Made by a program: the position numbers and the translations under genes. Below, one piece after another: positions 2,140 to 15,552 of a stretch of DNA of 64,000 bases. This stretch comes from an uncultured Pseudomonadota bacterium. GTDB lineage: Bacteria; Pseudomonadota; Gammaproteobacteria; Methylococcales; Methylomonadaceae. Within the stretch, counting starts at the first letter, position 1. The number at the start of each line of letters is the position of its first letter. The DNA lies in NCBI GenBank assembly GCA_903918375.1, contig CAIXED010000012.1, forward strand, positions 37,526 to 101,525, read 5' to 3'. The notes under the pieces were generated by a model, which saw only the letters and a list, made by a program, of their open reading frames with translations, was not told the origin of the DNA and ran no database searches.

Positions 2140-5100
2140 CGGTTCAGCCCCACGGCTGTGGGGAACGCCCTAAAACGTCAATCTTTGTGACCAAACCATT
2201 CGGTTCAGCCCCACGGCTGTGGGGAACGCCCTGTAATGCAAGTAGTGACTGGGCTACGAGACGGTTCAGCCCCACGGCTGTGGGGAACGCTCAGCACTAG
2301 CTTTCTAAGTGGATTTCCTGTTCGGTTCAGCCCCACGGCTGTGGGGAACGCAAGCGATGCTCGATTTTGGCAAAGTGACTCAGCGGTTCAGCCCCACGGC
2401 TGTGGGGAACGCGGCTCACTGGTACGCGGCTATGCGTTCAACGCCGGTTCAGCCCCACGGCTGTGGGGAACGCGGACAGTTAATGCATCACGATAATCCA
2501 GTTAGCGGTTCAGCCCCACGGCTGTGGGGAACGCTTTCTTTTTTTTAGCAACAACGTCCATATCGTCGGTTCAGCCCCACGGCTGTGGGGAACGCCGCCG
2601 CACCAAACGCCGCGCGAGTTTGCGGGTCGGTTCAGCCCCACGGCTGTGGGGAACGCTTACAAGTTTTGCTTTATCTATACAAGCAAATCGGTTCAGCCCC
2701 ACGGCTGTGGGGAACGCATGCTTGCATCAAGCGTTATGATCGACCGCATACGGTTCAGCCCCACGGCTGTGGGGAACGCATATATTGAACAAACTCAATA
2801 CCATATTATGACGGTTCAGCCCCACGGCTGTGGGGAACGCATTCCAAGAATTACGGTTGACAAGCTTTTCTTCGGTTCAGCCCCACGGCTGTGGGGAACG
2901 CTTTAAGATTCGCTTCCCAAGCAAAAGCCATTGCGGTTCAGCCCCACGGCTGTGGGGAACGCCAGCATGGTTTTTCCAAAAGACGAAACCACGCCGGTTC
3001 AGCCCCACGGCTGTGGGGAACGCACGCCGCCAAAATCAAGTGTAACTCGTTCGTTCGGTTCAGCCCCACGGCTGTGGGGAACGCTATTTACAGCACGACA
3101 ATTGAATTTAAGGTTACGGTTCAGCCCCACGGCTGTGGGGAACGCTTCTTTGCTCCACTTGGCAATATTGCAACCAGCGGTTCAGCCCCACGGCTGTGGG
3201 GAACGCTAACCATCGTATAGCGCGATCAATAAATCCGCCGGTTCAGCCCCACGGCTGTGGGGAACGCATCCACCTTGTCTTTAATTGCTTGTGAAGTGGC
3301 GGTTCAGCCCCACGGCTGTGGGGAACGCCAGCATGGTTTTTCCAAAAGACGAAACCACGCCGGTTCAGCCCCACGGCTGTGGGGAACGCGATTCAACGGT
3401 ATCGAATGACAATTCCGGCTGCGGTTCAGCCCCACGGCTGTGGGGAACGCGAATAGCGTGCTGATTTGCACCGTTTAGCGATACGGTTCAGCCCCACGGC
3501 TGTGGGGAACGCGATTGTTTCAATGGGTTGGCGCAGGTGACGTTCGGTTCAGCCCCACGGCTGTGGGGAACGCTAACCACCGCCCAAACCCGCTCATCCA
3601 ACAACCGGTTCAGCCCCACGGCTGTGGGGAACGCAACGGTTTGATAACCCACCCATTCAGAAATGTCGGTTCAGCCCCACGGCTGTGGGGAACGCGGTTG
3701 CCGCCAGTGCCAACGACTCCCGGGATTACGGTTCAGCCCCACGGCTGTGGGGAACGCGTTAACCGGAGTAACTGCATAGCGCCATCAGGCGGTTCAGCCC
3801 CACGGCTGTGGGGAACGCCTCTGATTAAAGTCAGAAAGGAGGTGTTTTCGCGGTTCAGCCCCACGGCTGTGGGGAACGCCTGATAAAACTTTTTCAATTA
3901 CAGCAGGAACTCCGGTTCAGCCCCACGGCTGTGGGGAACGCAAGATTAAAAACAATGTCAAACTTTTTTTTGTCGGTTCAGCCCCACGGCTGTGGGGAAC
4001 GCTTATCCTTCATCATTTGGAGTAAATGCTAATACGGTTCAGCCCCACGGCTGTGGGGAACGCTGGAGAAATTAACATGAGTTATACAAAAGGGCCGGTT
4101 CAGCCCCACGGCTGTGGGGAACGCTGTTGGTTGCTTTTCTTTAGTCGGCTATATGGCGGTTCAGCCCCACGGCTGTGGGGAACGCCACCGCTGCTACAGG
4201 TACAACGGGTTCTTGTGCGGTTCAGCCCCACGGCTGTGGGGAACGCAATTATTTCGGTAACTGCAAATACAACATATACGGTTCAGCCCCACGGCTGTGG
4301 GGAACGCTTCAGAGAACGCAACTTCCATTGTGCGCTGACCGGTTCAGCCCCACGGCTGTGGGGAACGCCGCCGCCGGACTGATCGAGCTTGACTAACAGT
4401 CGGTTCAGCCCCACGGCTGTGGGGAACGCAAATCATCATTGCTGTTGACCGCTCTAAACCCCGGTTCAGCCCCACGGCTGTGGGGAACGCAATAACATTT
4501 ACACAAAACCCAACCGCAACGCCGGTTCAGCCCCACGGCTGTGGGGAACGCACCGAAACCGAGCCAGCCACGTATTCATAGGGCGGTTCAGCCCCACGGC
4601 TGTGGGGAACGCTTATCCTTCATCATTTGGAGTAAATGCTAGTTCGGTTCAGCCCCACGGCTGTGGGGAACGCTAATGAGCTAACAGCAATCACAGTACA
4701 TATAGCGGTTCAGCCCCACGGCTGTGGGGAACGCAACATCAGCAAAACAAGATACAGGTAATACATCGGTTCAGCCCCACGGCTGTGGGGAACGCCTATG
4801 CCAAGAAATTACGACACGACAAATAACCGGTTCAGCCCCACGGCTGTGGGGAACGCATTAAGTACTAACTGGGCGACATTTTTCACAGCGGTTCAGCCCC
4901 ACGGCTGTGGGGAACGCTTAATTTGCGAATCTGTAGCCATTGCGCGACCCGGTTCAGCCCCACGGCTGTGGGGAACGCGGAACACAAACAGCCACTTTAA
5001 ATACGTGCGCCGGTTCAGCCCCACGGCTGTGGGGAACGCTTTAAATAAGGCATTTCATCAATTTGATGTTGCGGTTCAGCCCCACGGCTGTGGGGAACGC

Positions 5101-5405
5101 CTGAAATTAAATTAACTTGCCCAGTTGTCGAACGGTTCAGCCCCACGGCTGTGGGGAACGCTGATGCCATATGGAGCGGAACAGGAAATGGAACGGTTCA
5201 GCCCCACGGCTGTGGGGAACGCGAGATAAAGCGTGTTAATCATGTCAGTAATGTCGGTTCAGCCCCACGGCTGTGGGGAACGCCCATCAATTACAAGGCT
5301 TTGCGGTTGATAATGCGGTTCAGCCCCACGGCTGTGGGGAACGCGGTTGTTACTCGGTTTGTGCTGGTCATTTTGGCGGTTCAGCCCCACGGCTGTGGGG
5401 AACGC
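2140..5405 (-). CRISPR. Type I-E CRISPR array, 54 repeats and 53 spacers
   Basis: The 29-bp repeat (plus strand starts CGGTTCAGCCCC and ends TGTGGGGAACGC) occurs 54 times, first at 2140-2168 and last at 5377-5405. I saw no base change in any copy, including the leader-distal one. Spacers are 32 bp except four of 33 bp (starting 2718, 3451, 3696 and 3880). Read on the minus strand the repeat starts GCGTTCCCCAC and ends CTGAACCG, the orientation of the E. coli type I-E repeat, with a 6-bp CCCCAC/GTGGGG stem and AGCC loop for Cas6e. Transcription is therefore leftwards from the leader next to cas2. Two spacers are identical (2963-2994 and 3329-3360) and two differ at only two bases (4003-4034 and 4613-4644). 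Confidence 0.99.
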
Positions 5406-5483: not shown

Positions 5484-6678
<1,195 letters not shown>

Positions 6679-6687
6679 GATGATTAT

Positions 6688-7572
6688 TTAATTTACTTTT
6701 TTAACCATTACCAATCCACAGCCGAACGCTTTTGCGCGACCTAAGCCGTTGAAGAGGGTGTGTTGGAATTTATCAATATCAGTGATTTGCAGCTCACCCG
6801 TTAAATCAACGGTGCTAAAACCTGATTTGTCGCCTTTTTTTTTCACTTTCTGTGGTAATGCGTGCCAATAGTAACCGCTGTTTTGCAGCTTGCTTGAACC
6901 ATTTTGATCATGGACCAAATCAAAGCCACAGCGTTCGCCTTGGCGACACCACCAATTTTCCAAGGCTTTATCAATTTGAACTTTCGTAGCCCACTCTAAT
7001 TTATCGGCTAGGTTAGCGATTTGGCTAAGACGCTCGGCATAGCTTGGATCGTTCGCCAATACTTGAGTTAAGTATTGATTCAGCGGCTCACCACCGTTAC
7101 TTAACAGTAGTTTTTTGTATTCTCCCTTATTTGGTTTGCTTGATAACAAAGCTTGCAAATGTAGCGTTTCTACTAAATCGCTTAAAAAGCGCCATTGTGC
7201 GTCCATAACTACATCGTGCTTTTTACCTTGCCGATCAACCACAGGATTAACACGACATTCAAAAATCAAACGCTGTCCAACTTCTAACTGTGGCTGATAG
7301 GGTTTGGTTTCCACTTTAAATAGCGAATCATCGTTTTCTACTGGCTTAAACTGAGAAACCACGTAATAAATGGGCTCCCCTCTTACAGTTGCTGATACAG
7401 CGAGTTGCTCGCGAGCAATTTCTTCACGATACAAAAAAGTACGTTCGTCTTGCTCTGGAAATAAGCGCCACAATATGCGATGAACAGCGTATTGGTCTTG
7501 CCTGAACATGTCGGCCAATATCGACAACTCATTGATACCCTGTTTTATTCGGACTCTGGAAAAGTACATCAT
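6688..7572 (-). CDS. cas6e: CRISPR pre-crRNA endonuclease Cas6e with a large internal insertion
   Basis: The start overlaps the cas5e stop (ATGA) behind the Shine-Dalgarno GGGAGG. The N-terminus MMYFSRVRI, a His at 31 in AVHRILWRLFP (position of the E. coli catalytic His20) and the C-terminal glycine-rich loop GLGRAKAFGCGLV identify Cas6e, which cuts each repeat at the base of its stem and stays on the crRNA 3' end. At 294 residues it is about 95 longer than E. coli Cas6e (199). Much of the excess is a helical segment at roughly residues 127-205 between the two ferredoxin-like halves. Function of the insertion is unknown. Frame is intact. Confidence 0.95.
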   Translation of the reverse strand: MMYFSRVRIKQGINELSILADMFRQDQYAVHRILWRLFPEQDERTFLYREEIAREQLAVSATVRGEPIYYVVSQFKPVENDDSLFKVETKPYQPQLEVGQRLIFECRVNPVVDRQGKKHDVVMDAQWRFLSDLVETLHLQALLSSKPNKGEYKKLLLSNGGEPLNQYLTQVLANDPSYAERLSQIANLADKLEWATKVQIDKALENWWCRQGERCGFDLVHDQNGSSKLQNSGYYWHALPQKVKKKGDKSGFSTVDLTGELQITDIDKFQHTLFNGLGRAKAFGCGLVMVKKVN

Positions 7573-8345
7573 TCACCTCCCTGATAATAATAATGCTCTT
7601 GGCGTGGCGCAAATTGCCAGCGTTTGCGTGACAGCGGCTGGTCGTGGCGAACCCGTGTTTGTATCCTGCTTACCGGCACAGTATCGTCAAAATCTTGCAT
7701 TGAACCTTCCCAATAATAATGGCGCTGATTGTTTAGCTTTAACCAACTGCTATCGCGTTCAAATACACCATCACTTACAGCTTGGTGGGTGGGTAACAAA
7801 GGTTTGTGTTGATAGGCTTTAAATGCCGCCAAGTAATGGCTTTGATTCACCAACAACTGCGGACTCAGCGGCGCGGCCAATGGACAGGATTTGCGGCCCA
7901 AATACAGGTGAAAAACCGGCTTTATCAGTTTTTCTTGTATTTGCTGCAAGCTAAACGGCGCTGACGCTAAAGCATGAACCGCTACCACGGCCAAGGCATC
8001 GCTACGGTATTCTCGGCTGGATAAAATCGTGCCCAAACGCTCTTTACCCAACACTAATTCATCCCGGCGAGTGCGGTAGGTAAATTTACCAACCGAATCG
8101 GGTACTTGAGTGGTGTGATAGTCGCGCAACAACTGACCACCGCTAAACACTTCCACCGCGATCTGATAACCGCCTTGCAAAGACAGTTGCCCCGCTTCAT
8201 CGTCACGCGGTATGCCCAATGCCGCAGCTAACAAGCCTAAGATGGCCGACTTGCTAGGGTAATTGGCGCTGTGCCGACTTTCGCCGACGGCAATTTCGCC
8301 CCAGCTCGCCAAGTTGCCGTATAAACGGAACAGTAATAAGTCCAT
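7569..8345 (-). CDS. cas5e: Cascade subunit Cas5e (CasD)
   Basis: A 258-residue RAMP protein opening MDLLLFRLYGNLASWGE, followed by the family signature SRHSANYPSKSAILGLLAAALGI. Cas5e caps the 5' handle of the crRNA in Cascade and contacts Cse1. The segment DYHTTQVPDS and the thumb-like middle region fit the family. It follows cas7e by 12 bp and overlaps cas6e by 4 bp, so translation is coupled. Length is slightly above the E. coli protein (224). No anomaly is visible. Confidence 0.96.
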   Translation of the reverse strand: MDLLLFRLYGNLASWGEIAVGESRHSANYPSKSAILGLLAAALGIPRDDEAGQLSLQGGYQIAVEVFSGGQLLRDYHTTQVPDSVGKFTYRTRRDELVLGKERLGTILSSREYRSDALAVVAVHALASAPFSLQQIQEKLIKPVFHLYLGRKSCPLAAPLSPQLLVNQSHYLAAFKAYQHKPLLPTHQAVSDGVFERDSSWLKLNNQRHYYWEGSMQDFDDTVPVSRIQTRVRHDQPLSRKRWQFAPRQEHYYYQGGE

Positions 8346-8357
8346 AACGGCTCCGAG

Positions 8358-9425
8358 TTAAGCGCTGACAAATTCCAGCAGTTCAGACAATTTGCCTTGG
8401 TGTTGGCTGGGCAGTGCGTTTAATTCGTAGCGGGTATCAGCACAATCGCCATAAACTTCGTCAAAACTGGTACGTTGGGCGGTTAAAGCGGTAATGGCTT
8501 GTGCGGCGTAGTCATCGTGCTGTTTATCAACGGGTTTTAGAAATGCCACCGATAACGAGCGCGGTTGTTGATCGCCTTTTTCGGCCAGCACATAAGAGGC
8601 ATAGGCTCTGGAAGCGAAGCTGTTTTGTTTGCCTTCCGGCGCGACTTTAACGGCGGCTTCGGTTAGGGCGCGAATCGCTTGATTAGCCAGTGCTTCGTTA
8701 CCGTCGAGGTTTTTAATCAACAATTCTTTGTTGATGCAGATGTAGGCATAAAACAAACCAGCTGCAAAGCGGGTTTCGCCGATGTGGGCAGCGCCCGTAT
8801 CTTCTAAGCCATTATTGAGGTCATCCACAGCAGTGAAATAGTCGTCTTCAATCACCACAGGATGTACCGTGATGGCGTGGGCAACTTGGCAGGCTGCTTC
8901 GATATTAAACGCGGGGCTGGAAGCTAGCATACGACCAAATAAGGCAATATCAACCGCTTGCTGATTGGCGCGCAGTAAATTAAGGTCATCTTTTTCGGGA
9001 GCGCGTTGCTCGACAATCAATTGCTCGGTTAATGCTTGAATCGCTGATCGTTCAGCAGGGCCAACATGCACTAACTGCTCAATTTCCAATTCAGCCAGTG
9101 GATTGTTGTCTTCTGCTTTTTTAAATTTACCGAATACACCCGCAATCAATTTAGTCCATTCTTTAGCATCTTTATCTTTGACGCCGCCAGCCACCAGTTG
9201 GTTATAAACTTCTCTTCCCAACAATTTTGTCCGCTTGCCGAGATGATTTGCCATCGCATTCTCAAATAAATCGGAGGTGCGCCAAGTACGCTTTAAACAT
9301 TGAGAAGAAACCCGTAACCGGTCGTAACCACCCATTTTGGCGGTCTTAGGGCTACCTTGGTCATCACGGTTTAAATTGGCTGGTGGATAAGCGGTTAATA
9401 AATGCAATTGGATAAAACGGCTCAT
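8358..9425 (-). CDS. cas7e: Cascade backbone subunit Cas7e (CasC/Cse4)
   Basis: A 355-residue Cse4/CasC protein; six copies form the helical backbone over the crRNA spacer in Cascade. The start MSRFIQLHLLTAYPPANLNRDD, with PKTAKMGGYDRLRVSSQCLKR after it, is the hallmark N-terminus of the family. ALFGRMLA, AHAITVHP and HIGETRFAAGLFYAYICIN are further conserved stretches. A clear Shine-Dalgarno GGAGAG lies before the ATG. It is 11 bp after cse2. Confidence 0.97.
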   Translation of the reverse strand: MSRFIQLHLLTAYPPANLNRDDQGSPKTAKMGGYDRLRVSSQCLKRTWRTSDLFENAMANHLGKRTKLLGREVYNQLVAGGVKDKDAKEWTKLIAGVFGKFKKAEDNNPLAELEIEQLVHVGPAERSAIQALTEQLIVEQRAPEKDDLNLLRANQQAVDIALFGRMLASSPAFNIEAACQVAHAITVHPVVIEDDYFTAVDDLNNGLEDTGAAHIGETRFAAGLFYAYICINKELLIKNLDGNEALANQAIRALTEAAVKVAPEGKQNSFASRAYASYVLAEKGDQQPRSLSVAFLKPVDKQHDDYAAQAITALTAQRTSFDEVYGDCADTRYELNALPSQHQGKLSELLEFVSA

Positions 9426-9436
9426 GTGATCTCTCC

Positions 9437-10021
9437 TTAGTCAGTGTTTTTGGGTAATGCGGTGAAATAATCGGTTGCCCAACGTACAGCTAGGCGATCT
9501 TTGGGGTTGCGGTAATCAGCAATTTGGTTGAACTCTCGATGCCAGTGAGCAATGTCGTAGGCCAACGAAACCACATTAACGTTGCAGTCTAGCAAGTGAA
9601 TCGCCCGAAGAACGCGGCGATAAAAGTCCTCGGGAGAGGTGCTTTTTTGCAATTGTTGAAAGCGCAATTCACTCATGGGGGCTTTGCTTTTACCGTCAAC
9701 AGGCGTTGCCAGTTGTTCGGCAAAGCTGGCATATCTAACCGCAACCTCAGCCGATTTCTTGCTGAGGTTAATGCGGCTTGCCGTTTGTTTATTGGCTTTA
9801 ACATGGGCAACCGCACCTGCAATGCTGGCTTTGGTCAATAGAGGGGTTTTTTCCGACCATTCGGTTAACGGTTTCATCCATTCCAAGAAATGAAAAAACG
9901 CATCGGTAAGAAGAACATCTTCTGGGCTATCGGCTCGCCGTAACCGTGCGCGATCACCTCGGTTATCGTCTAACCACGTATGCCATTGCTGTAATAGTTG
10001 ACCAAAGGTTATTTCGCTCAT
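9437..10021 (-). CDS. cse2: Cascade small subunit Cse2 (CasB)
   Basis: A 194-residue helical protein in the position of Cse2, with a typical weakly conserved sequence: basic helices RARLRRADSPEDVL and a C-terminal RDYFTAL-like end (VRWATDYFTALPK). Two copies form the belly of Cascade and hold the displaced DNA strand. It overlaps the cse1 stop by 4 bp. Assignment relies on RLRRA..PEDVL, YDIAHWH and operon position. Confidence 0.93.
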   Translation of the reverse strand: MSEITFGQLLQQWHTWLDDNRGDRARLRRADSPEDVLLTDAFFHFLEWMKPLTEWSEKTPLLTKASIAGAVAHVKANKQTASRINLSKKSAEVAVRYASFAEQLATPVDGKSKAPMSELRFQQLQKSTSPEDFYRRVLRAIHLLDCNVNVVSLAYDIAHWHREFNQIADYRNPKDRLAVRWATDYFTALPKNTD

Positions 10022-11595
10022 GATGCCTCCTGCTCTGGCTTAGCTCTTGCTTTAAGGTTTTTGATGGTTTTATTACTGTGAAACTTTTTGCCTAAATTGT
10101 TTTTGGCAAGGATGATGCGTTTTAAGTCCAAATCTTCGGGTGTGGCCGCCAAGGTAGCGTTTTCAAAAACCGCGAATAGCTGTTTTTTCAGCGTTTCAAA
10201 CCAGTGGGAATAAATCCCACTGGGTGCTTGCCCTGTATCAGCGGGTAACGCTGCGAGCTGTTCCAAAATCAAGTAAAAATCGGCTTCTGTGGCTTGCCAA
10301 AATTGCGCGTCGATTTGGCTCATGTCACCTTTGGCATCTTCGGGGCGTCGAAACCAAGCCGCTTTGACTTCACTGCGTAACAGTTTGACGGCTTCTTTGG
10401 CGGCATCGATTAACTCTTTTCCCCAACGAGTGAGATTAGTTCGCTGAACATCACTCAGGTAATACACGGGAAACCGCGATTCATACCAGCAACGGGCTTT
10501 CATGTTGTCCATGTCATATCCAAAGCACCACAACCCAGCTTTTCCACGATCCGATAACTGTCGGCCGCGTTCTTGGTTATAAAACTGCACCACGCTAGCG
10601 GCTTTGTCACCGGTATCTTCATCCTGCATTGCTAAGCCTAGCCAATGCCGATAGCCTAAACCGCCCTGTTGACCTTTCAGCGACAACGGAAAATTGACTT
10701 TTTTCGGGTCGAAACGATACGGCGTTAAAGGATGCACCCAAGCACCGTCATAGTTAGTACCGTAGTTTTTGGTTTTAAAACCTTGATAAAGCTCGGCAGC
10801 GGGTTTACCGCAGACATCGCAGTCGGCATCTTGAGTTTTATCGGTCAATCGAATACGGCGTGGCATCCCCCAATAGGCGTGTAACGGATGGACATCGACC
10901 GGTGTGGTGATCTGGCCTTTATCCGATAACCGAGTTTTTCCGAGCCACGGTAAAACATGTGCGTCTAGCGTCTTTGCTGTTTCAATTTCTTCCTGATTCT
11001 GCACGTTGAGCCAGAGTTTTTGCCACAAGGTGCTGGTGGCAGCTTTGGGAATAATCAGTGTAGTTAATGGGCCGCCGCCGCGTAAGCCAACCCGATGACC
11101 GACACCACCTGATGGTGCGTTGGTTTGCAAGGTAAACAATGCGGCTGCTGTGCAGCTAGGGCATAGTTGGTTAATGGTGTCGCGTTTGATGAAATGGTCG
11201 AGGTTGTCTTTAATGGTTTTACCGCCCGGTGCTTCGATAAATAACGCGGCAATGGTTTTGTTTTCGCCATCGATTAAATCAAAGTCTTGCAAAAAAGCCG
11301 CGCCTTGAGGATTTTCCAGCTCAAAGGCAAAAGCCAGTTGTTGTAACTGGGCTTCTAGTTCAGTAGCTGCGGGCGGTTCTTGCCAGTATTCGTCCCATTG
11401 ATCTTCGTCTTCCGGCGCAAATGCGGTTTGCAATAAACCAATGAGTAACTGATACAAAGCACCCTGAAAGTCTGGGCGCGGTGCAGCAATCTCAACCACA
11501 GGGTTATCGATTTCGGCAATTTGCCACGGTGCAATGACATCGAGTTGATGGTTTTGACGGATGACCGGTATCCAGTGGTCGTTTATTAGGTTCAC
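10018..11595 (-). CDS. cse1: Cascade large subunit Cse1 (CasA/Cas8e)
   Basis: The start is the GTG at 11593-11595, giving MNLINDHWIPVIRQ, the standard Cse1 opening. It has a strong AAGGAG five bases upstream; the same frame is open for 54 more codons but that extension has no family resemblance. The 525-residue product recognises the PAM, opens the DNA and recruits Cas3. Two CxxC pairs (C145/C148 and C259/C262) could bind zinc. It heads the Cascade genes and is separated from cas3 by 354 bp that carry a peptide ORF, a promoter and a mini-CRISPR. It lies 28 bp after the peptide ORF. Confidence 0.96.
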   Translation of the reverse strand: MNLINDHWIPVIRQNHQLDVIAPWQIAEIDNPVVEIAAPRPDFQGALYQLLIGLLQTAFAPEDEDQWDEYWQEPPAATELEAQLQQLAFAFELENPQGAAFLQDFDLIDGENKTIAALFIEAPGGKTIKDNLDHFIKRDTINQLCPSCTAAALFTLQTNAPSGGVGHRVGLRGGGPLTTLIIPKAATSTLWQKLWLNVQNQEEIETAKTLDAHVLPWLGKTRLSDKGQITTPVDVHPLHAYWGMPRRIRLTDKTQDADCDVCGKPAAELYQGFKTKNYGTNYDGAWVHPLTPYRFDPKKVNFPLSLKGQQGGLGYRHWLGLAMQDEDTGDKAASVVQFYNQERGRQLSDRGKAGLWCFGYDMDNMKARCWYESRFPVYYLSDVQRTNLTRWGKELIDAAKEAVKLLRSEVKAAWFRRPEDAKGDMSQIDAQFWQATEADFYLILEQLAALPADTGQAPSGIYSHWFETLKKQLFAVFENATLAATPEDLDLKRIILAKNNLGKKFHSNKTIKNLKARAKPEQEAS

Positions 11596-11623
11596 AGCGT
11601 CTCCTTGACCGTGTGGTCGTGAA

Positions 11624-11746
11624 TTAAATCTTAATTGCGATAATGATAGCCAGCACAAGTACGAGCAAAAGCGCCATTGAGATAACGGCAAGAGGCGCAG
11701 GCGAAAAGGAATTAAGCGCTTCAATAATGCCTTTAATGTGCTCCAT
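11624..11746 (-). CDS. 40-residue single-helix hydrophobic peptide, candidate CreT-like toxin
   Basis: A short ORF, ATG at 11744-11746 and TAA at 11624-11626, encodes 40 residues: an amphipathic start MEHIKGIIEALNSFSPA and then one strongly hydrophobic helix, PLAVISMALLLVLVLAIII, ending AIKI. It lies between a good promoter (11776-11804) and cse1, which begins 28 bp downstream in the same direction, so it would be the first gene of the Cascade operon. Its shape is that of small membrane toxins of RNA-controlled systems. A GGGG run sits 6-9 bp before the ATG as a weak ribosome site. No homology is claimed. It could also be a non-toxic leader peptide or chance ORF. Confidence 0.55.
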   Translation of the reverse strand: MEHIKGIIEALNSFSPAPLAVISMALLLVLVLAIIIAIKI

Positions 11747-11775
11747 GACTGCCCCATATCGCAAAAGATGCGGCA

Positions 11776-11804
11776 ATAATAGTGCGCTAAATTTATTTTG
11801 TAAA
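11776..11804 (-). promoter_or_regulatory. Sigma70 promoter for peptide ORF and cse1 operon
   Basis: On the minus strand, TTTACA (11799-11804, 5 of 6 consensus) and TATTAT (11776-11781, 5 of 6) are spaced by exactly 17 bp. The predicted start is some 23 bases before the peptide ATG at 11746. The -35 box overlaps the AAG PAM (11803-11805) of the sequence matched by the mini-array spacer, so Cascade bound there would block RNA polymerase. Promoter activity itself is prediction. Confidence 0.7.
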
Positions 11805-11838
11805 GCTTCTTTGTCTTTTATAAATTTTTGTTTAGGTA
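11803..11838 (+). promoter_or_regulatory. PAM and partial protospacer matched by the mini-CRISPR spacer
   Basis: AAG at 11803-11805 is followed by CTTCTTTGTCTTTTATAA (11806-11823), identical to the first 18 nt of the mini-array spacer at 11894-11911. The next base differs and only one of the last 15 positions agrees. AAG is the canonical E. coli type I-E PAM and lies in the correct place and strand. A seed-side partial match with a good PAM is the form expected to allow Cascade binding with little or no Cas3 cleavage. The 36-bp footprint covers the -35 box of the operon promoter. Confidence 0.8.
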
Positions 11839-11864
11839 TGCCTGCTTCTCGATTAAACTAATCA

Positions 11865-11955
11865 ACGTTCCCCAAATGATTGGCGATGAACCGCTTCTTT
11901 GTCTTTTATAAGAGAAGCATGTCAATACGTTCCCCGTACCCACGGGGCCTTAACC
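11865..11955 (+). CRISPR. Mini-CRISPR with two diverged repeats and one 33-nt spacer (CreA/CreR-like guide)
   Basis: Reading the plus strand, 11865-11893 matches the array repeat (transcribed sense) at 21 of 29 positions and 11927-11955 at 18 of 29; the spacer between is 11894-11926. Both keep CGTTCCCC at the front. The first ends ATGAACCG, close to the canonical 8-nt handle CTGAACCG. In the second, the 6-bp stem is complete although two of its base pairs are changed on both sides (CCCCGT/ACGGGG). In the first, one pair is replaced in a compensatory way and one pair is broken. The direction is opposite to the cas operon and main array. The last 6 nt overlap the cas3 stop. A possible promoter, TTGTAA (11798-11803) with TATAAA (11819-11824), has short spacing and is uncertain. 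Confidence 0.8.
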
Positions 11956-14688
11956 TATAAACCCTTGCTGGCTAGAATAAATCTGTTGCTCATTTTCTAA
12001 TGGCAACACCTCTAGCCAGCGCAATGCGGGCTGCTCCTGTTTGAGCGCATCAATCGCTATTTGCCATTGAGCAGGTATTTGTTGCTTGACTTTGCGCCAA
12101 TCTGCTTCAGGCAACTTAATCGTGCTTAATGCCCAAGCAAAGTGCTCACCGACGGCATAGGGTTTTAGTCGCCCACCATCCATCGTTGCCAGCGCGACTG
12201 AAATGGTTTCTTGTTCAGTCAGTCGAGTGGGGATTCTTGTTTCTTCGTCCCAGTCACCGCTATTGCGTGTATAACCTTTATCCAGTTTTAGCGCGTTTAA
12301 GTCAGCCATGCTTTCGCGACTTTTATTGGCGCCTTCGGCATCAAATGATTGCCGTTCTAATGCCTCCGGGTAAATTGCCCATTCCGAATAAACACTCTCA
12401 ATCAGGTATCTGGCATCTTCCGGCATAGTCCACTGGCCTTTATCCAGCAAGGTTTTAGCGGTAAGCCACAGTTGACCGATGTGCGGATATACCCCCTGCG
12501 TACCTGCATGATCGGGCTTTAACCATTTTTCATCTGCATCATCTCTTGGCTCTGGTGTGTATAAGTACAAGATCGGTGCACCGCGTTGGTCTTGGGCATT
12601 TTCTGTGGTGATGGGATTACCTTGTTGGTCTCGAATATGACGACGCAAACGACCTGCACGTTGAATGATTAAATCAATGGGCGCTAGGTCGCTGACCATT
12701 ACATCGAGGTCTAAATCTAAAGACTGTTCAACTACTTGGGTGGCAATCAGAATCTGGCCTTGACGCTGTTGTGTGGTCGAGTGCTTACCAAATTTTGCCA
12801 ACACATCGGATTCAATAGCCTGCCGGTCAATCATGGCAAAGCGGCTGTGAAATAAGGTGATTTGTTCAGCGGGCACCCCTGCTTCCCGCAAGGCCCGATA
12901 GGCTTGTCGAGCAGATTTAACGGTATTGCGTATCCAGCAAACACAGTGTTTGGCGCTTATGCTGGCCTGTATGATATCCATAACAGCCTGTTCGCTCTCC
13001 AGACGATGGATTTGTACGGTGCGCTTAACTTCTTCACGGGTATCGATGATTTGTTCGATTTTATCCATCGCGCTAGCAGGCGTATGAGTCACCAAGGGAT
13101 AATCGGATTCACTATTCAGTATTGGGCTTGCTTGATTCAAGCCACGATGAAACGCATCCACCAAATTTTTCCGCATAGTTTGCGGCAAGGTGGCCGATAG
13201 CAAAATGACACTACCACCTTGGCGGGCATGAACCTCCAACAAAGCATCTAGCAGCTTTTGCATGTAGCTATCGTAAGCGTGTACTTCATCGACCAGCAAT
13301 ACTTTTCGCCCAAGACCCAGTAAGCGTAAGGATTGGTGCCTAGCAGGCAAAACCGCTAGCAGTGCTTGATCCAAAGTGCCGACCCCAACATCAGCTAATA
13401 AAGCTTTTTTGCGACTATCGGCTAGCCAAGCATTGCAGTAAGCAGTGGCACTGAGTTCTTGATCAGACTCATGTTGGCTGGTTTGATAATCGGCATCAGC
13501 TTGATTGTGCATACTAATAGCAACCGATTGCTGAAAGGCTTCAGACAGTTGTCTGGCACCATGGGCCAGCACCAACGAAGGCTGGCTATCGGCTTGATAA
13601 AACTGCCGATACATTTTGCTAAGACGTTGATACATGGCGTTAGTGGTTGCCATAGTCGGTAATGCGATATAAAGCCCATCAGCCAAACCTTGTGACATTA
13701 ACCGCTGAGCCAGAACCAACGCTGCCTCGGTTTTGCCCGCTCCCGTCACATCTTCCAAAATGAACAGTTGAGGTTGATTGGGTAGTGTTTCGTTAGCAGC
13801 GTAATACTGCAGCGGAGCTGGGGTCTTGATGAAGTTAAATAAGCAATCAATACCTTGAAAGGCTTGAACTTTGACAGATTGCGGTAAAGCCTGAATGGCT
13901 TTTTTCGCACTGGGTAAAGCGTCAGTTTCCCAATAATCATCTAGGTTTTTCACTTGACTGCAATAAGCAAAATGCTCTTGATTAGAACCTAACCAATCGG
14001 CTAACACCGCAACCCCTGCCATTTGCCAAGAAATTGGTTTAAGTTGTTTGACAAGCGATTTGTCTTGTAATGGCTGAAAATCAAAATCATCCAACAGTAA
14101 ATCGGCAACGTCCTGAATAAACGTCAGTGTCGCGACTTTATCTTCGGATTGAAAAAAGTTGTTGATCGACAAAGATTTTTTAGGCGGCATACCGTGATGA
14201 CCGGTGACGATTTCCAGCCAAGGCTGCCAGTGTTTGCAGCTAATTGATTGACTGGTTTTTTGGCTTAAACCTTCTGAAATTTGGTCTTGTAGTTCATCCC
14301 AAATGCAAAACCCCAAACTGTCGTGACGCTCTTCGTAGCACATACGAGGATTGGCCTTAACCAAATTGTCTGATAAATCGGTTTTCAAGCCCTGAAACGC
14401 TCGAGCAAATTTACCCAAGTCATGTATTGCCAAGCAAAATACTAACCAAGTTTTTAGCCATTTTGGTTCAACACCTAATTGAGCCGATAAATTATCGATA
14501 AAAGTTTTTTTGGTTTCAAAAAGAAAATAGCCTACCGCAGCCACATCCAAACAGTGGTAAGGCAATAAATGATAACTAGCTTTGCTGTCATCATTTGACT
14601 TCGCCTTTCCCCAATATCTGTAATACATAGCGATAACAGACTCCAAGGTTGGGCCTTCCTTAGAGTCAAAGCGAACTTGATTATTCAT
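11950..14688 (-). CDS. cas3: CRISPR-associated helicase/nuclease Cas3 (type I-E)
   Basis: The chosen ATG at 14686-14688 has AAGGTGG just upstream; a TTG seven codons earlier is open but unlikely. The 912-residue protein has an N-terminal HD nuclease domain (AIHDLGKFARAF, His-Asp near 89-90; TGHHGMPP near 163; ADWLGS near 230), then a superfamily 2 helicase with Walker A TGAGKTEAAL (from about 315), DEVHAYD (about 467) and QVVEQSLDLDLDV with QRAGRLRR in the second RecA fold. It degrades DNA recognised by Cascade. It is the first cas gene and is separated from cse1 by 354 bp, unlike the tight spacing of the rest, so it is probably transcribed separately or by read-through. I see no confident promoter in 14689-14938. 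Confidence 0.97.
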   Translation of the reverse strand: MNNQVRFDSKEGPTLESVIAMYYRYWGKAKSNDDSKASYHLLPYHCLDVAAVGYFLFETKKTFIDNLSAQLGVEPKWLKTWLVFCLAIHDLGKFARAFQGLKTDLSDNLVKANPRMCYEERHDSLGFCIWDELQDQISEGLSQKTSQSISCKHWQPWLEIVTGHHGMPPKKSLSINNFFQSEDKVATLTFIQDVADLLLDDFDFQPLQDKSLVKQLKPISWQMAGVAVLADWLGSNQEHFAYCSQVKNLDDYWETDALPSAKKAIQALPQSVKVQAFQGIDCLFNFIKTPAPLQYYAANETLPNQPQLFILEDVTGAGKTEAALVLAQRLMSQGLADGLYIALPTMATTNAMYQRLSKMYRQFYQADSQPSLVLAHGARQLSEAFQQSVAISMHNQADADYQTSQHESDQELSATAYCNAWLADSRKKALLADVGVGTLDQALLAVLPARHQSLRLLGLGRKVLLVDEVHAYDSYMQKLLDALLEVHARQGGSVILLSATLPQTMRKNLVDAFHRGLNQASPILNSESDYPLVTHTPASAMDKIEQIIDTREEVKRTVQIHRLESEQAVMDIIQASISAKHCVCWIRNTVKSARQAYRALREAGVPAEQITLFHSRFAMIDRQAIESDVLAKFGKHSTTQQRQGQILIATQVVEQSLDLDLDVMVSDLAPIDLIIQRAGRLRRHIRDQQGNPITTENAQDQRGAPILYLYTPEPRDDADEKWLKPDHAGTQGVYPHIGQLWLTAKTLLDKGQWTMPEDARYLIESVYSEWAIYPEALERQSFDAEGANKSRESMADLNALKLDKGYTRNSGDWDEETRIPTRLTEQETISVALATMDGGRLKPYAVGEHFAWALSTIKLPEADWRKVKQQIPAQWQIAIDALKQEQPALRWLEVLPLENEQQIYSSQQGFIG

Positions 14689-14938
14689 ATCCACCTTTTC
14701 AAAATTCAACCTAATCTAAAATAGTAATTCTGGATTGTAACTAATTATTTAAAATCAAAAGGTTAAATGATGTTAAATGCTTTTTATTCAACACCTTATA
14801 TCTAAAAACCTGAAACGCTTAACACTCTCCTCAATCGCATTAAACTATCCCCATTGCAGGTTAAGGTGCCAATAATGCATCAATTTCCATCCTAATAGGG
14901 GTTGTGTACTGTCACCTCGATCTACGGCAAAATTATGC

Positions 14939-14977: not shown

Positions 14978-15274
14978 ATGCCACAATCGCAGATTGCCGC
15001 CAAATCCATATCTGTAAAACTTGACTCGGAGTTCCACGCCCGCGTTGAAAATATCGCAGAAGCTCGTCATCGCTCTACTCACTGGGTAATGCGCGAAGCA
15101 ATTACTCAATACGTTGAACGTGAAGAAAAGCGCGAAGCATTCCGACAGGATACACTCAGGGCTTGGGAGGAATATCAGGAAACAGGCTTACACGCTACTG
15201 CAACAGAGGTCGATAAATGGCTTGCTAGTTGGGGTACTGACAATGAACTGTCTACCCCTGTATGCCACAAGTAA
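14978..15274 (+). CDS. Ribbon-helix-helix antitoxin (CopG/ParD type)
   Basis: A 98-residue protein whose first half is a ribbon-helix-helix DNA-binding domain: the strand SISVKLDSEFHARVENIAE followed by RHRSTHWVMREAITQYVE. The charged C-terminal part would wrap the toxin. It is followed by an overlapping ParE/RelE-type toxin gene (13-bp overlap) and preceded by AAGGAG and an operator-like inverted repeat, so it probably autorepresses. It is divergent from cas3. Confidence 0.88.
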   Translation: MPQSQIAAKSISVKLDSEFHARVENIAEARHRSTHWVMREAITQYVEREEKREAFRQDTLRAWEEYQETGLHATATEVDKWLASWGTDNELSTPVCHK

Positions 15275-15552
15275 GCTATTCGCCAGCGGCAATCCGTGAC
15301 TTAGAAAGATTGCGGGAGTTCTTGCTTCCGAAGAATCAGGTTGCGGCGCAACGTGCCGGCAATACGATCATAAAATCATTACAAGTGCTTGGACAACAGC
15401 CCCAAATTGGACGCAAAATTGAGGATATGCCAGACCAATACCGAGAATGGTTAATCGATTTTGGCGATAGCGGCTATGTGGCACGTTATTACTTCGATGA
15501 TAAGCAAATCACTATTTTGGCAGTGCGCCATCAAAAAGAGATGGGCTACTAA
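15262..15552 (+). CDS. ParE/RelE family toxin
   Basis: A 96-residue protein of the RelE/ParE superfamily: MPQVSYSPAAIRDLERLREF at the front, QPQIGRKIEDMPDQYREWLI in the middle and YVARYYFDDKQITILAVRHQKE at the end, the usual strand pattern ending in an Arg-His pair. ParE members poison gyrase and RelE members cut mRNA; the sequence alone does not settle which. Translation is coupled to the antitoxin by a 13-bp overlap. Only seven bp separate it from the convergent NYN gene. Confidence 0.87.
   Translation: MPQVSYSPAAIRDLERLREFLLPKNQVAAQRAGNTIIKSLQVLGQQPQIGRKIEDMPDQYREWLIDFGDSGYVARYYFDDKQITILAVRHQKEMGY

What the first reader, a model, noticed from the sequence alone, without database searches (positions are those of the whole stretch)
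11865..11955. Mini-CRISPR with diverged repeats between cas3 and cse1, facing against the operon
Two repeat-like units (21/29 and 18/29 identical to the array repeat in its transcribed sense) flank exactly 33 nt, the same unit size as the main array, but 6 kb away and on the other strand. The first ends ATGAACCG, one base from the crRNA 5' handle. The second keeps a full 6-bp stem with two base pairs changed on both sides, which points to selection on the RNA hairpin rather than decay. This is what a stand-alone crRNA-like guide (CreA or CreR type) needs. I know of such guides mainly from type I-B and related systems; an example in the cas3-cse1 gap of a type I-E operon would be a notable extension.
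Basis: partly seen in the sequence, partly recalled or inferred. Interest (0 to 1): 0.95.

Follow-up and report, generated by a model that had tools for sequence, protein, structure and literature searches.

The report
CRISPR guide repressing its own operon
Between cas3 and cse1 this type I-E CRISPR locus carries a one-spacer guide gene whose first 18 guide bases exactly copy an AAG-flanked site at the predicted cse1 promoter, so it likely makes an RNA that steers the CRISPR complex Cascade to switch off Cascade's own genes; elements of the same design sit in related bacteria and in E. coli K-12.

Summary
Two degenerate I-E repeats flank a 33-nt spacer whose first 18 nt exactly copy 11806-11823, preceded by AAG, the I-E PAM. 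That site abuts the -35 of the predicted cse1 promoter. Expected by chance: 2e-9.

The same design occurs in 28 of 118 cse1 loci examined and in E. coli K-12, against 3 of 595 shuffled regions. PAM was not a criterion, yet 27 of the 29 targets carry AAG. Of 56 guide-target mismatches at positions 1-15, 43 fall at 6 and 12, bases that I-E Cascade flips out.

It is a CreR-type cas autorepressor. CreR in I-E is already in print: a new member of a known kind.

Not found in the papers I could read: a conserved one-helix peptide gene leads the controlled operon (19 of 28 creR+ loci, one broken copy in 90 creR- loci); guides tend to pair with their own seed; the E. coli K-12 element sits where the unexplained anti-Pcas RNA is reported. 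Transcript, processing, Cascade loading and repression are inferred.

The parts
11865..11893 (+). degenerate repeat 1 of creR; ends in the 8-nt 5' handle ATGAACCG
   Evidence: 21/29 to the array repeat; stem 5 of 6 pairs
11894..11926 (+). 33-nt guide; nt 1-18 copy the target, nt 1-7 can pair with nt 18-24
   Evidence: fold
11927..11955 (+). degenerate repeat 2 of creR, full 6-bp stem; overlaps the cas3 stop codon (11950-11952)
   Evidence: 18/29; fold; ORF ends
11803..11823 (+). creR target: PAM AAG (11803-11805) plus 18-nt exact match to the guide (11806-11823)
   Evidence: expected 2e-9 by chance in 3 kb
11776..11804 (-). predicted sigma-70 promoter of the cse1 operon, TTTACA-17-TATTAT; its -35 overlaps the PAM
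   Evidence: 10 of 12; 2 promoter-like sites found in 601 bp, 1.1 expected from shuffles
11831..11859 (+). possible creR promoter, TTTAGG-17-TAAACT, weak, read by eye
   Evidence: sequence; not reported by the scans
11624..11746 (-). small ORF, 40 aa, one predicted membrane helix, first gene behind the targeted promoter
   Evidence: hydrophobicity; family of 44 homologues; pN/pS 0.06-0.26 among 7 relatives
10018..11595 (-). cse1 (cas8e), GTG start
   Evidence: PF09481, 395 bits; start read
11950..14709 (-). cas3
   Evidence: Cas3_HD and Cas3-like_C_2
5484..10021 (-). cse2, cas7, cas5, cas6e, cas1, cas2 of the same operon
   Evidence: Pfam matches of all six ORFs
2140..5405 (-). main CRISPR array, 54 exact 29-nt repeats

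Best explanation
The element at 11865-11955 is a one-spacer guide gene (creR) whose first 18 guide bases copy an AAG-flanked site touching the -35 of the predicted cse1 promoter, and it likely makes a Cas6e-processed crRNA-like RNA that would park Cascade on that promoter and repress the cse1-cas2 operon. Shown by sequence: the two degenerate repeats, the handle, the target, the PAM, and the recurrence of this design with guide and target changing together. Inferred: transcription from the + strand, cleavage by Cas6e, loading into Cascade, promoter block. Pairing stops after nt 18, which in E. coli is enough for maximal binding but short of the extended pairing needed for DNA destruction, so the host promoter would be silenced, not cut. 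The circuit would be a thermostat: ordinary crRNAs compete with CreR for Cascade, so repression grows only when Cascade is in excess and lifts when an anti-CRISPR disables it. The 33-nt footprint (11806-11838) also reaches the possible creR -35, so creR may limit itself too.
For: Exact 18-nt AAG-flanked self-match, expected 2.3e-9. Target touches the predicted cse1 -35. Same architecture, antiparallel to cse1, in 28 of 118 loci plus E. coli K-12; null 3 of 595 shuffled regions, 0 with AAG. 27 of 29 targets have AAG although PAM was free in that scan. At positions not used for detection, mismatches over 29 guides are 23 at position 6 and 20 at 12, but 0 at 13, 3 at 14, 4 at 15. Controls: guides against other loci 17 of 3068 pairs, 14 of them between related loci; array spacers against their own cse1 upstream 3 of 610. 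Complete Cas set in the window. Literature: AAG plus seed suffices for Cascade binding, maximal with no more than an 18-bp match, while interference needs more pairing (PMC5904413, passages); positions 6, 12, 18 are flipped out (PMC4782391, passage); competition with crRNAs and relief by anti-CRISPRs are described for CreR in a review (PMC12737573, passages).
Against: No RNA, binding or reporter data. Repeat 1 has a C-C mismatch in the stem, so Cas6e processing is not assured. No creR promoter was called in the window. The promoter scan over 24 loci was loose and had no shuffled control: the first-listed cse1 promoter overlaps the target in 15, lies 1-11 nt away in 8, and in 1 (L031) only the second-listed one overlaps. 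In the window positions 6 and 12 also match, so the window alone lacks the flipped-base signature. 90 of 118 loci show no creR. In one search, 65 of 85 then-negative loci with a measurable gap had less than 150 bp upstream of cse1; of the 20 with more, 3 were later called and L050 looks likely, the rest have a gap and no call.
Confidence: 0.88

Rival explanations
1. The guide is mainly an antitoxin (CreA-like): the operon-leading membrane peptide is a toxin that Cascade-CreR keeps silent, so losing or inhibiting Cascade releases it; control of the cas genes comes along because they share the promoter.
For: The peptide gene is in 19 of 28 creR+ loci and, as a broken copy beside a decayed creR, in 1 of 90 creR- loci (L058). 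In 237 family genomes 19 of its 21 matches lie directly before cse1. A ParE_toxin gene (L043) or HicA_toxin with HicB (L026, L027, L030) sits in the same controlled stretch in some relatives.
Against: No toxicity shown and no known family. creR and the peptide gene share one gap, so co-loss needs no functional tie. 9 of 28 creR+ loci lack it, among them all 5 of the class set. A toxin tied to an autoregulated operon is never fully silent.
Confidence: 0.2
2. A decayed two-repeat array with no present function; the spacer was once acquired from the nearby promoter.
For: Repeats are diverged to 21/29 and 18/29.
Against: Paired changes keep the stem of repeat 2; handle kept; seed and PAM conserved across 29 diverged guides while positions 6 and 12 drift.
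Confidence: 0.03
3. The hairpins act in the cas3 transcript or as antisense RNA to the cas3 3' end, not as a guide.
For: Repeat 2 overlaps the cas3 stop codon.
Against: The only terminator-like site found in 11500-12100 is elsewhere; the handle, the spacing and the AAG target are not explained.
Confidence: 0.03

Closest known systems
CreR, cas-regulating RNA from mini-CRISPRs (types I-B, I-E, V-A)
   Same: crRNA-like RNA with partial match to the promoter of the cognate cas operon, guiding the cognate effector to repress it (review passages).
   Different: The primary paper (Liu et al. 2023, recalled) is not held, so its I-E examples could not be compared. A review calls CreR generally not coupled with toxin genes; here a conserved membrane-peptide gene of unknown role leads the operon.
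CreA of CreTA toxin-antitoxin RNA pairs (I-B; also I-F in Acinetobacter)
   Same: Two divergently degenerated repeats giving 5' and 3' handles; Cascade represses by partial match (PMC8501985 passages; PMC9458426 passages; I-F from the abstract start in the listing).
   Different: The target here is the cas operon promoter, and no RNA toxin was identified.
Mini-arrays with partial match to cas8 promoters (Shmakov et al. 2023, recalled)
   Same: As recalled, stand-alone repeat pairs with spacers matching cas8 promoters in several subtypes.
   Different: Not held under the DOI I tried; whether it lists these loci is unknown.
E. coli K-12 anti-Pcas transcript
   Same: Made from just downstream of cas3, 150-200 nt, overlapping the cas3 transcript (PMC7074321 passage); a creR-like unit with AAG target lies there.
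   Different: In the passage seen its role is not known; no homologue of the peptide was seen among the short frames of that gap.

Membership tests
CreR (cas-regulating crRNA-like RNA) | two degenerate cognate repeats around one spacer, outside the array | tested here: met
   unique in the window apart from one single 11-mismatch stretch
CreR (cas-regulating crRNA-like RNA) | 8-nt 5' handle and repeat hairpin kept | tested here: met
   ATGAACCG; stems 5/6 and 6/6
CreR (cas-regulating crRNA-like RNA) | guide matches the cognate cas promoter partly, next to a PAM | tested here: met
   AAG + 18 nt at 11803-11823, predicted promoter 11804-11776; the promoter itself is only predicted
CreR (cas-regulating crRNA-like RNA) | cognate effector genes present | tested here: met
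   cas3, cse1, cse2, cas7, cas5, cas6e, cas1, cas2 by Pfam
CreR (cas-regulating crRNA-like RNA) | RNA made, processed, bound by the effector and repressing the cas promoter | not testable with these tools
   no RNA or reporter data
CreTA (CRISPR-repressed toxin) | a toxin under the guide-targeted promoter | tested here: inconclusive
   conserved peptide gene there, no toxin family matched, toxicity unknown
CrePA (KilA-N type toxin) | KilA-N protein as target gene | tested here: not met
   the first two genes behind the targeted promoter are a 40-aa peptide and cse1
Known RNA families (Rfam 15) | covariance-model match in 11550-12050 | tested here: not met
   0 matches at E <= 1

The most novel reading that the evidence does not exclude
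creR and the operon-leading membrane peptide form a guarded suicide switch inside the I-E cas operon: the same Cascade-CreR complex that throttles the cas genes also holds down a membrane toxin, so an anti-CRISPR that disables Cascade releases both fresh Cascade and the toxin. A self-pairing guide makes CreR a deliberately weak competitor for Cascade, which sets the threshold.
Probability: 0.2. Interest if true: 0.85.

Novelty: new member of a known kind. Interest (0 to 1): 0.6.

Why it matters
It gives a dense comparative case for RNA-guided self-regulation of type I-E: 29 guide-target pairs that drift except at the bases Cascade reads. It points to a testable role for the E. coli K-12 anti-Pcas RNA, in the best-studied I-E system, and it uncovers an unnamed membrane-peptide family that, in the 237 family genomes searched, sits at the head of cse1 operons in 19 of 21 matches.

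Tried and rejected
Extension of CreR to I-E as the news: rejected, already in print. Terminator or antisense reading: rejected, see rivals. L039 hit: dropped as chance (stems 3 and 4, weak handle); it is not among the 29. L050 (AAA PAM) looks real but is not counted. E. coli's second I-E allele (cas1 60-80% identical in 2669 of the 3882 genomes with a match): 4 loci fetched, 3 of them scanned (L181, L182, L184), no creR, 97-bp cas3-casA gap. Overall folding energy of the guides does not differ from array spacers (p = 0.15); only the placed seed stem does, a statistic chosen after looking at the guides. Search for Enterobacteriaceae relatives of the E. coli element: no suitable genome handle found, so conservation outside E. 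coli is untested. Viral scan for the peptide family did not run.

Not examined: several cse1 places that came without a locus and fragments lacking the cse1 5' end; L123 and L130 hold under 400 nt upstream. No tree was built, so co-occurrence counts are not corrected for relatedness; near-duplicate guides were dropped only where the text says dereplicated (5 of 29, 4 of 24).

Full report
Observation. Both repeat-like units, their coordinates, identities, the 33-nt spacing, the near-canonical handle and the compensated stem are as described. The window holds a complete I-E operon on the - strand (cas3, cse1, cse2, cas7, cas5, cas6e, cas1, cas2) and a 54-repeat array. Rfam has no match here.

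Target. Spacer nt 1-18 recur exactly at 11806-11823, 88 nt away on the same strand, directly behind AAG. The expected number of such matches in 3 kb is 2.3e-9. The site touches the -35 hexamer of the one minus-strand promoter-like site found in 11500-12100, TTTACA-17-TATTAT.

Relatives. Cse1 was found in 21 of 61 relatives, 35 of 370 genomes of the class and 79 of 237 of the family. One family member, G451, has the contig length of Methylobacter marinus A45 (order Methylococcales). I examined the DNA upstream of cse1 in 118 loci. A first detector with AAG required gave 24 hits, one dropped as chance; its shuffled control gave 6 of 1020 regions at the loosest setting, none with both stems (on 51 loci, 14 of which hit). 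A second detector with free PAM and spacers of 18-36 nt gives 28 of 118 (11 of 21 near relatives, 5 of 28 class loci, 7 of 19 and 5 of 50 family loci) plus E. coli K-12, against 3 of 595 shuffled regions. PAMs are 27 AAG, 1 AAA, 1 AAT. Targets lie on the creR strand in 24 and on the other strand in 5. Three class loci have guides of only 20-21 nt (L052, L059, L068).

Signature. Over 24 dereplicated pairs, matches are 24 of 24 at each of positions 1-5 and at 13, 5 of 24 at 6, 8 of 24 at 12, 21 at 14, 20 at 15, 14 at 16, 10 at 17, and lower beyond with 10 at 19. Positions 1-5 and 7-11 were used for detection; 6 and 12-15 were not. Over all 29, 43 of 56 mismatches in positions 1-15 are at 6 and 12. 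Every sixth base is flipped out in Cascade (PMC5904413 and PMC4782391, passages). The window itself matches at 6 and 12 too, so its signature rests on the relatives.

Why repression and not cutting. In E. coli, AAG plus a short seed is enough for Cascade binding, maximal affinity needs no more than an 18-bp match, and interference needs more (PMC5904413, passages). As a set the matches fade beyond about position 17. That this holds in the window's organism is inference.

Guide hairpin. In 15 of 22 dereplicated full-length guides the first part of the guide can form a stem of 5 or more Watson-Crick pairs with the later part; shuffles give 4.3 +/- 1.8, maximum 10 in 1000. An earlier count: 14 of 20 guides against 98 of 610 array spacers (26 of 120 AT-rich ones), and 2 of 20 target sites. 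Total folding energy does not differ from array spacers, and the statistic was chosen after inspection. I infer that the stem may weaken CreR in competition for Cascade.

Leading peptide. Behind the target and before cse1 lies an ORF of 40 aa with one predicted helix (11624-11746). Relatives carry a homologue, mostly 35-42 aa (L080 and L095 run longer): 19 of 28 creR+ loci and 1 of 90 creR- loci. The profile was built partly from these loci; L077, L080, L091, L095 and L058 were found with it. In L058 the copy is cut short in its frame and creR has lost a recognisable repeat 1 and its match. Across 237 family genomes 19 of 21 matches lie directly before cse1; the other two are weak and in long frames. 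It is under purifying selection, pN/pS 0.06-0.26 in 21 pairs, has 44 homologues without a listed Pfam domain and no match above cut-off in Pfam or NCBIfam and none in PADLOC; PHROGs gave only weak matches, E 0.06-0.09. ParE_toxin (L043) and HicA/HicB (L026, L027, L030) also occur in the controlled stretch.

E. coli K-12. A unit with handle ATAAACCG, both stems and an AAG target matching 14 of the first 16 positions (not 6 and 9) lies at the cas3 end of the cas3-casA gap. DNA matching the gap is in 1125 of 5426 E. coli genomes. In 4 other strains aligned, the only change in guide positions 1-16 is at position 12; one strain (P276M) has a target change at 14. A review places the anti-Pcas RNA, 150-200 nt and of unknown significance, just downstream of cas3 (PMC7074321, passage). 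Whether the link is in print in the papers not held is unknown; my searches of the held library did not show it.

Known or new. CreR in I-E is stated in PMC13131331 (passage). Of PMC12948488, PMC12737573, PMC8501985, PMC9458426 and PMC10097628 I saw passages. The element is therefore a new member of a known kind; the peptide, the self-pairing guide and the short guides are the possible variants.

Noticed in passing
L044:8482-8570 (E. coli K-12, cas3-casA gap): creR-like unit with AAG target upstream of casA at the reported place of the anti-Pcas RNA; in 4 other strains the only guide change in positions 1-16 is at position 12.
   Followed up: partly
L052, L059, L068 upstream of cse1: creR units with guides of only 20-21 nt and AAG targets; position 6 mismatched in all three.
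   Followed up: partly
L026, L027, L030, L043 upstream of cse1: Toxin-antitoxin genes (HicA/HicB, or a ParE-like gene without visible partner in L043) lie between the creR target and cse1.
   Followed up: partly
L058 upstream of cse1: A relic: creR lacks a recognisable repeat 1 and its match, and the leading peptide gene is broken.
   Followed up: partly
window 14978-15552: ParD/ParE-like toxin-antitoxin pair upstream of cas3 on the other strand (Pfam RHH_1 and ParE_toxin).
   Followed up: no
window 2933-3023 and 3299-3389: The same repeat-spacer-repeat unit occurs twice in the array, 100% identical: a duplicated spacer.
   Followed up: no
L181, L182, L184 (E. coli, second I-E allele): cas3-casA gap only 97 bp and no creR found, while a Hok/Gef family gene lies upstream of cas3.
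   Followed up: partly
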